Below are positions 7,728 through 22,858 of a DNA stretch of 64,000 nucleotides, one piece after another. The position numbers were made by a program, and so were the translations under genes. The notes below the pieces were generated by a model, which had not been told where the DNA came from, ran no database searches, and saw nothing but the letters and a program-made list of their open reading frames with translations. How positions within the stretch are numbered: the first letter of the stretch is position 1; every line of letters starts with the position of its first letter. Origin of the DNA: Conexibacter arvalis (GTDB taxonomy: Bacteria; Actinomycetota; Thermoleophilia; Solirubrobacterales; Solirubrobacteraceae); NCBI RefSeq assembly GCF_014199525.1, contig NZ_JACHNU010000008.1, positions 1 through 64,000 of the forward strand, given 5' to 3'.

Positions 7728-7895
7728 CCCGCTCCTGGCCTCCGGATCCGCCGTGTTTGCAGCGCCTTCGCGTTCGAGGAAGGGGGTCACCGCCCGCTCC
7801 CCCGGTGACCCCCTTCCTCGACCTGCACTTAGAAGAACCAGCTCGGGGAGATGAGGTGCGAAGGCGAAAGGAAGGGCCGGAGGCCAGGAGCGGGA
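7728..7895. repeat. 168-bp nested palindromic element in the gene-free stretch 7587-7952
   Basis: The outer arms are a perfect 19-bp inverted repeat: 7728-7746 with 7877-7895. A few more pairs (CCGC/GCGG) lie outside across one G-T mismatch. The inner arms are a perfect 18-bp repeat: CGAGGAAGGGGGTCACCG at 7775-7792 with its complement at 7803-7820, loop 10 nt. This fills much of the 366-bp region between the antitoxin start and the excisionase gene, which contains no supportable gene. It could be a mobile palindrome, a terminator, an origin/transfer site or a folded recombination site. Both halves look like diverged copies in inverted orientation. Confidence 0.75.
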
Positions 7896-7952
7896 TGCGG
7901 AACTCCATGACGGAAGTCGTGCAGCCAGCGGCCTGTGGCCCTGGTGCAGCTG

Positions 7953-19823: not shown

Positions 19824-20513
19824 CTAGTCGAGATCCCCGGCCGCCGCCGCGTGCAGCGGCCGCGGGCGGCGGCTGGAGCGACGGCCAAGGTGCTTGCCGT
19901 CGCCGTTGCCGGCCTGTCTGCCGTCCTCGGGCACGCCGGCGGCCTCGAACAGCATCAGCACGACCCCGCTCGGCATCGCGCTCTTGCCGTGCTCGTCGCC
20001 GGCGTCGCGCAGCCGCGCGGCGCTCTCGCCCTCGATCTGCTCCAGCTTCGACATCAGGTTCTCGAGCTCGCCGGCGAGATCTCTCCAGCCCTGCTCGTCG
20101 AGCGTCACGGCGCGACGGCTGAGATGGGCGTCGCCGCGATCGAAGCCGCCTCTGGCGGCGGCGGTGTTGACGTAGCCGGTCACCTGCTCCAGCGACGCGC
20201 CGACCATCGCGCGCTTGACGATCGACGGCGTCTCGGCCCAGCCTTCGTCGGTCACGACCGGGCGCGCCTTCGCCCGGTAGTGGTGCTCTATCGCGCCACG
20301 GCGCGGGGTCCGCTTGACCAGCTCCAGGAACCCGAGCGCGTGCAGACGGCGCACGTGGTAGCTCATGACGCCGAGCGACACGCCGAGCAGCTCCGACAGC
20401 TCGTTGGGGCTGGCCAGCTCCCGGTCCTCGAGGATCGCGAGGATGCGGATCCGCAGCGGATGCGCGAGCGCCTTGATCAAGCGCGGGTCGGTGATGTCGC
20501 TGTACGGCTTCAT
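19824..20513 (-). CDS. ArsR-type winged-helix regulator
   Basis: This 229-aa protein begins with ITDPRLIKALAHPLRIRILAILEDRELASPNELSELLGVSLGVMSYHVRRLHALGFLELVKRTPRRGAIEHHYRA, compressed here only as a domain of about residues 7-85: an ArsR/HTH_20 winged helix with beta-wing. A helical C-terminal half (about 100-180) and a basic tail RRSSRRPRPLH follow. The ATG overlaps the stop of the upstream ECF sigma factor gene (ATGA), so both proteins come from one transcript. I see no metal-binding cysteine pair, so a metal sensor role is unlikely. Confidence 0.85.
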   Translation of the reverse strand: MKPYSDITDPRLIKALAHPLRIRILAILEDRELASPNELSELLGVSLGVMSYHVRRLHALGFLELVKRTPRRGAIEHHYRAKARPVVTDEGWAETPSIVKRAMVGASLEQVTGYVNTAAARGGFDRGDAHLSRRAVTLDEQGWRDLAGELENLMSKLEQIEGESAARLRDAGDEHGKSAMPSGVVLMLFEAAGVPEDGRQAGNGDGKHLGRRSSRRPRPLHAAAAGDLD

Positions 20514-21043
20514 CGGGTCGTCTCGAGTTCCTTCCGCAGGCGTCCTCGGAGTCGGTGGAGTCGCACTTTCACGGTGCCCTCGGGAATGCCGAGTATCCGG
20601 GCCATCTCCGGTTGACTCAGATCTCCCTCATAGCGTAGAGCAAGCAAGCGGCGGTCATCAACGGAGAGGCGCTCGACGACCTGCCCGACCTGGAGCCGCA
20701 GCAGCAGCCCCTCGCGCTCCTCCTCCGCCTCTTCGTCGGCGACGGTCGCGAGGACCGACTCGTCGTCGAGCAGCTCCCGCTCGGAGCGCGTTCTGCGTCG
20801 CGCGAGCAGTCGCAGCGCCTCGTTGCGGGCGATCTGGCGCATCCACGGCACGCGGTCCTCGCTCCGGCAGGTGGCACGCCGACGCCAGGCGCGCAGCAGC
20901 GCCTCCTGAACGGCGTCGTCGATGTCTTGTGCTGCCGGGAGGAATCGTCGGGCCTCTCGCGACGCTGCGGCCCGCATGCGCTCCCAATCCCAATCCTCGT
21001 CTCCCGGCCTCTGCACGCGGATCCCCGCGACTGCTCGGGCCAC
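20510..21043 (-). CDS. ECF-type sigma-70 family sigma factor
   Basis: This 177-aa protein starts with GTG at 21043. Region 2 is visible as AAQDIDDAVQEALLRAWRR with PWMRQIARNEALRLLARRR. Region 4 follows as LSVDDRRLLALRYEGDLSQPEMARILGIPEGTVKVRLHRLRGRL, with the HTH in the last 30 residues. There is no region 3, as in ECF factors. Instead of an anti-sigma gene, the overlapping downstream partner is an ArsR-like regulator. The gene is divergent from the methyltransferase at 21121. Confidence 0.9.
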   Translation of the reverse strand: MARAVAGIRVQRPGDEDWDWERMRAAASREARRFLPAAQDIDDAVQEALLRAWRRRATCRSEDRVPWMRQIARNEALRLLARRRTRSERELLDDESVLATVADEEAEEEREGLLLRLQVGQVVERLSVDDRRLLALRYEGDLSQPEMARILGIPEGTVKVRLHRLRGRLRKELETTR

Positions 21044-21120
21044 AAGGCAAATATCGAGGTTTCGTCAAAGTTGGCGAAGTATGTGAAACGGTCGTGAGCG
21101 CTCAGCGGGTCTACGTGGTC

Positions 21121-21897
21121 ATGGAGACGACCACACCACCCGCGGCGCTGATCGCATATGAGCGGCTCGCCCCCGTCTACGACCGCTTCACCGACTCCTA
21201 CGACCACGACGGCTGGGTCGGGCGGTTGGAGGCGCTCGCACGCCGCCACGGCCTCGCCGGCCGCCGCGCGCTCGACGTCGCCTGCGGCACCGGCAAGAGC
21301 TTCCTCCCGCTCGTCGCCCGCGGCTACGACGTGTGGGCGTGCGACTTGTCGCCGGCGATGGTCGACCGGGCACGACGTGTCACCGGCGACGTCTCACCTG
21401 CGCGCGTCACGGTAGCGGACATGCGCCAGCTTCCGGCGCTCGGCTCCTTCGACCTCGTCACCTGCCTCGACGACGCCGTCAACTACCTGCTCGACGACGA
21501 CGGCCTGCGCGCCGCCTTCGCGAGCGTCGCGCGCCTGCTCGCGCCCGGCGGGATCTACCTCTTCGACGCGAACACGCTGGCGACGTATCGCGACGGCTTC
21601 GGCGCCCGCGCCACCTTCGAGCGCCCGCTCGCGGACGCGATCTGGCGCGGCGAGACGACCGGCCCGATCGTGCCGGGCGCGATCTGCTCGGCGTCGATCG
21701 AGATCGGCGGCCCCGCCGCCGCCGTCAGCCGTCACGTCCAGCGCCACCACCCCGAGGCGACGGTGCGCGCGCTCTTGGCGTCGGCCGGGCTCGACTGCCG
21801 GGCCGTGATGGGCCAGTCCCCCGGCGGACTCCTCCACGAGGAGCCCGACGAGGAGGCCCACACGAAGCTCGTCTACGTCGCGCGGCGACCGGTTTGA
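21121..21897 (+). CDS. Class I SAM-dependent methyltransferase
   Basis: This 258-aa protein uses ATG 21121; upstream GTG codons are also in frame and no clear ribosome site is present. Motif I is RALDVACGTGKSFLPLVARGYDVWACDLSPAMVDRAR in outline (GxGxG-like VACGTGKS, acidic D at motif II). It is followed by VTVADMRQLPALGSFDLVTCLDDAVNYLLD and LLAPGGIYLFDANT. This is the Methyltransf_25 family acting on small molecules; the substrate is unknown. The micro-ORF at 21939 begins 41 nt after its stop on the same strand. Confidence 0.9.
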   Translation: METTTPPAALIAYERLAPVYDRFTDSYDHDGWVGRLEALARRHGLAGRRALDVACGTGKSFLPLVARGYDVWACDLSPAMVDRARRVTGDVSPARVTVADMRQLPALGSFDLVTCLDDAVNYLLDDDGLRAAFASVARLLAPGGIYLFDANTLATYRDGFGARATFERPLADAIWRGETTGPIVPGAICSASIEIGGPAAAVSRHVQRHHPEATVRALLASAGLDCRAVMGQSPGGLLHEEPDEEAHTKLVYVARRPV

Positions 21898-21920: not shown

Positions 21921-21929
21921 GAGGAGGTG
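21921..21929 (+). promoter_or_regulatory. Near-perfect Shine-Dalgarno for the IIRP micro-ORF
   Basis: GAGGAGGTGA at 21921-21930 contains AGGAGGTGA, fully complementary to the 16S anti-SD sequence. It ends 8 nt before the ATG at 21939. This is the strongest ribosome site I saw in the window, which argues that the tiny ORF is translated. Confidence 0.7.
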
Positions 21930-21938
21930 AACCCAGTC

Positions 21939-21986
21939 ATGCAGATCATCCGTCCGATCATCCGCCCGGCGATCATCCGCCCGTAG
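21939..21986 (+). CDS. 15-residue IIRP-repeat peptide
   Basis: ATG at 21939 opens a 15-codon ORF encoding MQIIRPIIRPAIIRP, ending in TAG. The peptide is three IIRP units with one Ala spacer. It uses ATC for every Ile, CCG for every Pro and CGT/CGC for Arg. The ribosome site is near perfect. It follows a methyltransferase gene by 41 nt and precedes an 11-bp hairpin and a Crp/Fnr gene. Possible roles are a ribosome-arrest leader peptide (it ends Arg-Pro-stop), a tiny membrane or antimicrobial peptide, or a coupling leader. I know no family with this sequence. Confidence 0.6.
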   Translation: MQIIRPIIRPAIIRP

Positions 21987-22003
21987 CCGGGCGCGCTCCG
22001 GAC

Positions 22004-22040
22004 GGGCGCCGCCGAGCCGGGCAGACGGCCGGCGGCGCCC
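22004..22040 (+). terminator. Hairpin between the micro-ORF and the Crp/Fnr gene
   Basis: GGGCGCCGCCG at 22004-22014 pairs perfectly with CGGCGGCGCCC at 22030-22040, loop 15 nt. It starts 17 nt after the micro-ORF stop, close enough to interact with a ribosome stalled on the peptide. No U-tract follows, so it may be a terminator, an attenuator or an RNA-stability element. Confidence 0.5.
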
Positions 22041-22105
22041 GCCCTCCGGGCTCCGAGGAAATCCGGGAGAGCGATCCGCGCCGAACGGGTAGTGCAGGAG
22101 ACGGG

Positions 22106-22858
22106 ATGAGTGTCAGCGATACAACCACCCGCTCCGGAGACCGCTTCGTCTACGTGCTCGACCACGACGCCGGCCTGCGCAGCGTGCTCCAGGAGGCCGA
22201 TCGCGCCCGCTGCCGCCAGCACGCGGTCGCCGCGATCGCCGAGGTTCCCAGCGGGCCTTGGGATCCGCAGGCCAACCCGATGCCCGAGGCCGAGCTCGGC
22301 CTGCTCGTGCTCGACGGGCTGCTGATCCGCGACGTCACGGTCGCCGAGGCCCGCTGCGGCGAGCTGATCGGCCCCGGCACGATCCTGCGCCCGTGGGACG
22401 AGAGCGGGCTCGACGCGCCGATGCGCCACGAGGTCGACTGGCAGGTGATCGAGCCGCTGCGGGTCGCCGTGCTCGACCAGCACTTCCTGCGCGTCGTCGC
22501 CCACTGGCCGCCGCTGATCACGGCGCTGGTCGCGCGCGCCAACGAGCGCGCCCAGGATCTCGCCGTGATGGTCAGCATCCACAGCCTCAAGCGCGTCGAC
22601 GTGCGGCTGCTCGCCTTCTTCTGGCACCTCGCCGACCGCTACGGCAAGGTCACCTCCGACGGCGTGCTGGTGCCGCTGGCGCTCACGCATCGGCAGCTGG
22701 CCCTGCTGGTTGGCGCCCAGCGGCCGTCGGTCACCTCGGCGCTCGGCACGCTCTCCGAGCGCGAGCTGCTGCGACGCGACGACGACGGCAACTGGCTGCT
22801 GACCGGTGAGCCGCCCGAGGACCTCAGCGTGCTCGCGCCCAACGGGGTCGCGGCTTAG
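22106..22858 (+). CDS. Crp/Fnr-family transcriptional regulator
   Basis: This 250-aa protein has AGGAG 7 nt before the ATG. The N-terminal 150 residues fit a cyclic-nucleotide-binding-like beta roll (LLVLDGLLIRDVTVAEARCGELIGPGTIL). The long dimerisation helix (about 140-170) leads to a Crp-type winged HTH: VPLALTHRQLALLVGAQRPSVTSALGTLSERELLRRDDDGNWLL. The canonical cAMP-binding arginine motif is not evident, so the ligand is unclear. Its expression could depend on the micro-ORF and hairpin in its leader. Confidence 0.88.
   Translation: MSVSDTTTRSGDRFVYVLDHDAGLRSVLQEADRARCRQHAVAAIAEVPSGPWDPQANPMPEAELGLLVLDGLLIRDVTVAEARCGELIGPGTILRPWDESGLDAPMRHEVDWQVIEPLRVAVLDQHFLRVVAHWPPLITALVARANERAQDLAVMVSIHSLKRVDVRLLAFFWHLADRYGKVTSDGVLVPLALTHRQLALLVGAQRPSVTSALGTLSERELLRRDDDGNWLLTGEPPEDLSVLAPNGVAA

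What the first reader, a model, noticed from the sequence alone, without database searches (positions are those of the whole stretch)
21921..22105. 15-codon IIRP-repeat ORF with an ideal Shine-Dalgarno upstream of a Crp/Fnr gene
MQIIRPIIRPAIIRP is three near-identical IIRP units, preceded by AGGAGGTGA (8-nt spacing) and followed by an 11-bp hairpin 17 nt after the stop. The C-terminus Arg-Pro-stop is the kind of end at which ribosomes can stall. A ribosome held there would sit beside the hairpin and could set expression of the Crp/Fnr gene 120 nt downstream. An alternative is a tiny secreted or membrane peptide linked to the methyltransferase upstream. I know of no described family.
Basis: partly seen in the sequence, partly recalled or inferred. 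Interest (0 to 1): 0.78.

Follow-up and report, generated by a model that had tools for sequence, protein, structure and literature searches.

The report
Tetrapeptide-repeat microgene behind a methyltransferase
The 15-codon reading frame is a real, conserved gene for a tiny peptide built of repeated four-residue units; across the bacterial order it goes with the methyltransferase gene before it, not the regulator gene after it, which points to a very short precursor of a modified peptide rather than a ribosome-stalling leader.

Summary
Observation confirmed: at 21939-21986 lies MQIIRPIIRPAIIRP-stop with AGGAGGTGA 8 nt upstream, and an exact 11-bp hairpin starts 17 nt after the stop. It is not chance. 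All six Conexibacter-genus genomes with an intact contig carry it at the same place, as (IIRP)n, (IIKP)n or (FIRP)2 with 2-4 units. Every difference between units of one gene is synonymous.

The constant partner is the upstream methyltransferase (MT). In other genera of the order, MT homologues are followed at once by micro-ORFs with strong Shine-Dalgarno sites: MTIRP, MIIQP, MIVGP, MEIIAP, MICRPICRPICRPICRP. A second class (~20 aa) is followed by an RRE/E1-like (ThiF) RiPP enzyme. MT and micro-ORF sit behind a conserved ECF-type promoter (TGAAAC-N17-GGGTC), divergent from an ECF sigma gene. The gene after the micro-ORF differs by genus. In Conexibacter, Crp/Fnr has an invariant GGGTA box beyond the hairpin.

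Best reading: a RiPP-like precursor microgene whose unit is a tetrapeptide ending in Pro, modified by the MT (0.6). Product and chemistry are untested. I found no description of this family in the searched literature.

The parts
21084..21111 (+). ECF-type promoter TGAAAC-N17-GGGTC for the MT + micro-ORF unit
   Evidence: Only match in the 64-kb window, chance 0.03; the same motif lies just upstream of most MT homologues with a divergent ECF gene across the order. Promoter activity itself is inferred.
21121..21897 (+). class I SAM-dependent methyltransferase, constant upstream partner of the micro-ORF
   Evidence: Pfam PF13649; intact DVACGTGKS motif, 14-member alignment A1; NCBIfam best match daptide_MTase, below cut-off; structural neighbours PsmD, TylM1, CypM, CgnL.
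21922..21930 (+). Shine-Dalgarno AGGAGGTGA of the micro-ORF, 8 nt before the ATG
   Evidence: Sequence; strong SD conserved in all six genus members.
21939..21986 (+). micro-ORF MQIIRPIIRPAIIRP + TAG: three IIRP tetrapeptide units
   Evidence: Orthologues in six genomes with 2-4 units and synonymous-only differences between units; analogous micro-ORFs after MT homologues in other genera.
22004..22040 (+). 11-bp GC hairpin after the micro-ORF, probable transcription terminator (no U tract)
   Evidence: 98.5% of cells paired in six species, two pairs with compensatory change; hairpins follow many of the micro-ORFs in other genera too.
22087..22091 (+). invariant GGGTA box, likely -10 of a separate Crp/Fnr promoter downstream of the hairpin
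   Evidence: Invariant in six species. Assignment to a SigB/SigF-type -10 rests on my knowledge of actinobacterial promoters, not on a test.
20510..21043 (-). ECF sigma factor gene, divergent from the MT
   Evidence: Pfam Sigma70_r2 and r4_2; TIGR02937; conserved next to MTs that carry micro-ORFs.
19824..20513 (-). ArsR-like HTH regulator gene next to the ECF gene, third member of the conserved cassette
   Evidence: Pfam HTH_20; conserved neighbour.
22106..22858 (+). Crp/Fnr-type regulator gene; downstream neighbour in this genus only, probably not part of the unit
   Evidence: HTH_Crp_2; the downstream gene differs in other genera.

Best explanation
The micro-ORF encodes the peptide substrate of a minimal RiPP-like pathway. 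SHOWN by sequence: a methyltransferase gene and a micro-ORF sit behind a conserved ECF-type promoter motif and are followed by a strong hairpin; the peptide consists of one to four tetrapeptide units of the form [I/F/T]-[I/C/V]-x-P (IIRP, IIKP, FIRP, ICRP, TIRP, IIQP, IVGP, IIAP) ending at the stop codon; selection acts on the amino-acid sequence; relatives of the same cassette carry a ~20-aa peptide plus an RRE/E1-like RiPP enzyme in the same position. INFERRED: the divergent ECF sigma factor switches the unit on, the hairpin ends the transcript, the short peptide is made in excess (perfect SD against a near-leaderless MT start), the MT methylates it (on a backbone or N-terminal amine or a side chain), and the units may be released as small peptides, one to four per precursor. 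In Conexibacter the E1 step seen in relatives is absent, so the product would be only methylated and/or proteolysed.
For: Orthologous micro-ORFs with unit number 2-4 in six genomes. 33 synonymous, 0 nonsynonymous differences between units, with all 13 minimal changes at third positions. Micro-ORF after 23/67 MT homologues against 2/508 control genes. P-ending tetrapeptide micro-ORFs after MTs in four further genera, including an independent fourfold repeat MICRPICRPICRPICRP. About 20-aa variants followed by E1-like enzymes that pass the TIGR03882 cut-off (TOMM leader-binding) and hit ThiF. Micro-ORF presence tracks ECF gene + promoter (25/33 against 4/34, p = 1e-7). The MT's nearest NCBIfam model is the daptide RiPP methyltransferase, below cut-off, and its fold neighbours include the RiPP methyltransferases CypM and CgnL. 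MFS exporter directly after MSIIRWG; SBP_bac_5 binding proteins beside three ~20-aa loci. In G002 the MT frame runs in frame into FIRPFIRP.
Against: No leader region, RRE, peptidase or transporter was found next to the Conexibacter unit, and no RiPP-type E1 exists in the genus (one search finds only MoeB/MoeZ-like matches). The MT resembles small-molecule and sugar methyltransferases at least as closely as peptide ones, so its substrate is open. AlphaFold did not place the FIRPFIRP tail of the natural fusion (pLDDT about 50). No product is known. Several MT homologues, including most of the clade of genera g33/g45/g46, lack a micro-ORF.
Confidence: 0.6

Rival explanations
1. The peptide is not a natural-product precursor but a short regulatory partner of the methyltransferase, a pseudo-substrate or tiny subunit that binds and controls it.
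For: Strict linkage to the MT, the natural in-frame MT-FIRPFIRP fusion in G002, and the absence of other maturation genes in Conexibacter.
Against: Sequence varies strongly between genera while the MT stays about 45-55% identical; repeat units vary in number; relatives swap the peptide for ~20-aa RiPP-like ones with E1 enzymes. The tail is not docked in the AlphaFold model.
Confidence: 0.17
2. The micro-ORF acts in cis on the operon's own mRNA: a ribosome ending or pausing at the Pro-stop near the hairpin affects transcript 3'-end stability or termination. The peptide product itself is irrelevant.
For: Strong SD, Pro before the stop in this genus and others, and a hairpin 17 nt downstream.
Against: Endings without Pro in other genera (MSIIRWG, MLVKLR, MFIGSG, and MMLPDWKE in a probable Streptomyces). 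A cis role at the stop would not need 2-4 conserved upstream units. Hairpin-to-stop distances vary.
Confidence: 0.13
3. One reading: a leader peptide whose arrest at Arg-Pro-stop controls the downstream Crp/Fnr gene through the hairpin.
For: Micro-ORF, hairpin and Crp/Fnr gene are adjacent and co-directional in this genus.
Against: The MT, not Crp/Fnr, is the partner elsewhere, and other genes follow the micro-ORF. An invariant GGGTA promoter-like box lies between hairpin and Crp/Fnr. Arg/Lys exchange and varied endings argue against one arrest motif. No alternative antiterminator pairing was demonstrated (one search gives only one minimum-energy fold).
Confidence: 0.05

Closest known systems
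Microcin C-type RiPPs (MccA heptapeptide MRTGNAN, MccB ThiF-like enzyme; PMC12250964)
   Same: Micro-gene of a few codons as precursor; in related Solirubrobacterales cassettes a ThiF/E1-like enzyme follows; one relative has an MFS gene right after the micro-ORF.
   Different: No E1 in the Conexibacter unit; C-terminal Pro instead of Asn; tandem units; constant partner is a class I MT under an ECF promoter.
Enterofaecin / GRC RiPPs with RRE-ThiF enzymes (PMC12250964)
   Same: About 20-aa precursors next to a protein with an RRE-like N-terminal region and an E1 domain resemble the ~20-aa cassettes of the same MT family.
   Different: Different phylum, no WWIVI motif or radical SAM genes; the window's own locus lacks the E1.
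Daptides (daptide methyltransferase; PMC10036551)
   Same: MT's best NCBIfam match is the daptide methyltransferase.
   Different: 70 bits against a cut-off of 175; peptide lacks C-terminal Thr; no aminotransferase, decarboxylase or DUF-RRE seen next to it.
Cypemycin CypM and crocagin CgnL methyltransferases
   Same: RiPP methyltransferases of the same fold among the closest structures.
   Different: About 21-23% identity, no better than sugar N-methyltransferases TylM1/DesVI; partner genes differ.
Regulatory arrest/leader peptides (RAPP-type and others, PMC10951233)
   Same: Short ORF with Arg-Pro near its end, followed by a hairpin.
   Different: No RAPP motif, no conserved downstream target gene, endings not conserved between genera.

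Membership tests
RiPP precursor | ribosomally encoded short peptide under selection on the protein level | tested here: met
   Synonymous-only differences between units; six orthologues.
RiPP precursor | adjacent intact modifying enzyme, conserved linkage | tested here: met
   MT with intact SAM motif; linkage 23/67 against 2/508. That it acts on the peptide is not shown.
RiPP precursor | leader sequence with RRE or other recognition partner | tested here: not met
   Peptide is essentially all units; no RRE/E1 RiPP enzyme in the Conexibacter genus. Present only in the ~20-aa relatives.
RiPP precursor | modified peptide product observed | not testable with these tools
   Needs mass spectrometry.
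Microcin C type | MccB-like ThiF enzyme next to the micro-gene and C-terminal Asn | tested here: not met
   No E1 at the locus; C-terminus is Pro.
Daptide | methyltransferase above the NF041820 cut-off and C-terminal Thr precursor | tested here: not met
   70 bits against 175; no C-terminal Thr.
Regulatory leader/arrest peptide for the downstream gene | conserved association with the regulated downstream gene | tested here: not met
   Downstream gene differs between genera.
Regulatory leader/arrest peptide for the downstream gene | ribosome stalling at the peptide end | not testable with these tools
   Needs toeprinting or ribosome profiling.

The most novel reading that the evidence does not exclude
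A family of leaderless micro-gene RiPPs whose mature product is a Pro-ended tetrapeptide (IIRP, IIKP, FIRP, ICRP, TIRP, IIQP, IVGP, IIAP) encoded in one to four tandem copies by genes as short as five codons. One dedicated methyltransferase modifies it and a dedicated ECF sigma factor switches it on; an E1-dependent ~20-aa branch in the same order may represent a related or ancestral state.
Probability: 0.4. Interest if true: 0.88.

Novelty: new variant of a known kind. Interest (0 to 1): 0.74.

Why it matters
Genes of 5-20 codons are missed by gene finders. If these peptides are made and methylated, they would be among the shortest ribosomal precursors known, with the product encoded as tandem tetrapeptides and no leader. 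That challenges how RiPP enzymes are thought to recognise substrates. The fixed cassette (ECF sigma, HTH, MT, micro-ORF, conserved promoter) gives a simple rule for finding more of them, and a synthetic 4- to 15-residue peptide makes the enzyme test easy.

Tried and rejected
Crp/Fnr attenuator: rejected because the downstream partner is not conserved and an invariant promoter-like box lies beyond the hairpin. Chance ORF or simple DNA-repeat slippage: rejected because units differ only at synonymous third positions. Longer ORF starting at the MT stop (TTG/GTG/ATG overlapping TGA): open in some species but broken in G004, so not the conserved frame. Known RNA elements: Rfam finds only tRNAs in the window. 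Sigma-70/U-tract scans near the locus: nothing. Pattern searches for more IIRP micro-ORFs in the order, phylum and GTDB contigs found only the genus members plus unrelated matches inside longer genes or by chance. Folding the G002 MT-FIRPFIRP fusion: catalytic domain confident, tail unplaced. Literature searches for Conexibacter/Thermoleophilia RiPPs and for short-precursor RiPPs gave no matching family. One search's gene finder picked the wrong strand for some E1 genes (its cluster 13); corrected by direct translation. The first attempt at aligning the hairpin region used wrong coordinates for some rows and is replaced.

Full report
The window carries AGGAGGTGA (21922-21930), ATG (21939), fifteen codons reading MQIIRPIIRPAIIRP, TAG (21984-21986), and an exact 11-bp stem at 22004-22014 / 22030-22040; the Crp/Fnr ATG is at 22106. 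Rfam finds only tRNAs in the window.

The frame is conserved. Six of seven genomes have the micro-ORF at the same place, between methyltransferase and Crp/Fnr: MQIIRPIIRPAIIRP, MQIIRPIIRPIIRPAIIRP, MTIIRPIIRPIIRPAIIRP, MSIIKPSIIKPSIIKP, MGIIKPIIKPIIKP, MFIRPFIRP. The seventh contig ends before it. Units vary from two to four, Arg exchanges with Lys, and all three stop codons occur. Between units of the same gene there are 33 synonymous and no nonsynonymous differences over 28 pairs in seven genes, counting one gene from another genus; the 13 minimal changes are all at third positions, about 6e-7 if position did not matter and changes were independent. Independence is not strict, because two of the species share states. 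Selection therefore acts on the tetrapeptide, not merely on the SD or the RNA.

The partner is the methyltransferase. I collected 67 homologues of it in the order. Directly after, or overlapping, the MT stop are micro-ORFs with strong SDs. Class A ends in Pro: MTIRP (G103), MIIQP (G052, G226), MIVGP (G193), MEIIAP (G138), MICRPICRPICRPICRP (G192). Other short ones are MSIIRWG, MLVKLR (two species) and MFIGSG. Class B is about 20 aa (for example MLKIVKIEEETLPVASLVKNG, MIKITPIEEPTMPVAGYVKQG, MKPQEIKKPATPRSAIQKGG) and in most loci is followed, about 80-180 nt after the MT stop, by a protein that hits ThiF in Pfam and passes the TIGR03882 'TOMM precursor leader peptide-binding' cut-off where tested. 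A strong-SD micro-ORF of at most 25 codons follows 23 of 67 MT genes but 2 of 508 other predicted genes (p = 2e-21). A rare MT in a genome of a large-genome actinobacterial genus (probably Streptomyces, judged from genome size and gene content; G471) is followed by MMLPDWKE, a hairpin and genes on the other strand. The two other homologues found in that genus lack it.

A conserved cassette surrounds it. An ECF sigma gene and an ArsR-like HTH gene lie divergently upstream in most micro-ORF loci. Between ECF and MT is a motif TGAAAC-N17-GGGTC seen across the order; in the window it occurs once, at 21084-21111, with 0.03 expected. Micro-ORFs occur in 25 of 33 MT loci with both ECF gene and motif and in 4 of 34 others (p = 1e-7). 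The MT tree groups 27 of 29 micro-ORFs in one well supported half and needs 5 label changes against 12.5 in shuffles. The MT start lies 9 nt after the motif, so its message is probably near-leaderless, while the micro-ORF has a perfect SD; more peptide than enzyme would be made (inference).

The hairpin keeps 98.5% of its pairs in six species, with two compensated pairs. With only six sequences the covariation is modest: 29 of 500 shuffles reach it. Strong hairpins follow many of the micro-ORFs in other genera too, with different genes beyond. I read it as a U-tract-less terminator. Between it and Crp/Fnr, GGGTA at 22087-22091 is invariant, most likely that gene's own -10 box. This, and the changing downstream genes elsewhere, removes most support from the attenuation model.

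What the MT does is open. Its nearest NCBIfam model is the daptide RiPP methyltransferase, but below cut-off. Structural neighbours are C-methyltransferases of the PsmD type, sugar N-methyltransferases (TylM1, DesVI) and the RiPP methyltransferases CypM and CgnL, all at about 20-27% identity. The genus has only MoeB/MoeZ-like E1 matches. In G002 the MT stop is lost and the MT frame runs into FIRPFIRP, a natural fusion or an assembly error; AlphaFold gives pLDDT about 50 for that tail. Three class B loci carry an SBP_bac_5 oligopeptide/solute-binding protein next to the HTH gene.

Conclusion: a real micro-gene family is shown; a RiPP-like precursor role is the best-supported mechanism (0.6), and translation, modification and product remain to be tested. 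It does not meet the membership tests for microcin C, daptides or downstream-gene leader peptides, and it lacks the leader/RRE feature of a canonical RiPP. I found no description of this family in the searched open-access literature, which does not cover most subscription journals.

Noticed in passing
L086:669-1505: In G002 the MT reading frame continues in frame through the SD into FIRPFIRP, an apparent MT-peptide fusion; the genome is a 77%-complete, fragmented assembly, so an error is possible.
   Followed up: partly
L090, L094, L096, L097, L100, L101, L104, L135, L138, L143, L147: An unnamed RiPP-like cassette in Solirubrobacterales: MT, ~20-aa peptide with ...KG-x ending, protein with an RRE-like N-terminal region and E1/ThiF domain, divergent ECF sigma and HTH genes.
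   Followed up: partly
window 21084-21111: Order-wide ECF-type promoter TGAAAC-N17-GGGTC; the size of its regulon in the genome is unknown.
   Followed up: partly
window 22058-22091: Block GGAAATCC...GAGCGA...GGGTA conserved before the Crp/Fnr gene; the GGAAATCC part is near-palindromic and could be an operator.
   Followed up: no
L100:8704-10476, L101:8718-10466, L090:8538-10286: SBP_bac_5 (oligopeptide/solute-binding) lipoprotein genes next to three class B cassettes.
   Followed up: partly
L207 around 7817-7900 (also L196): A probable Streptomyces genome with the MT carries an 8-codon ORF MMLPDWKE with AAAGGAGGTGA and a hairpin after the MT; its two homologues in the genus lack it.
   Followed up: partly
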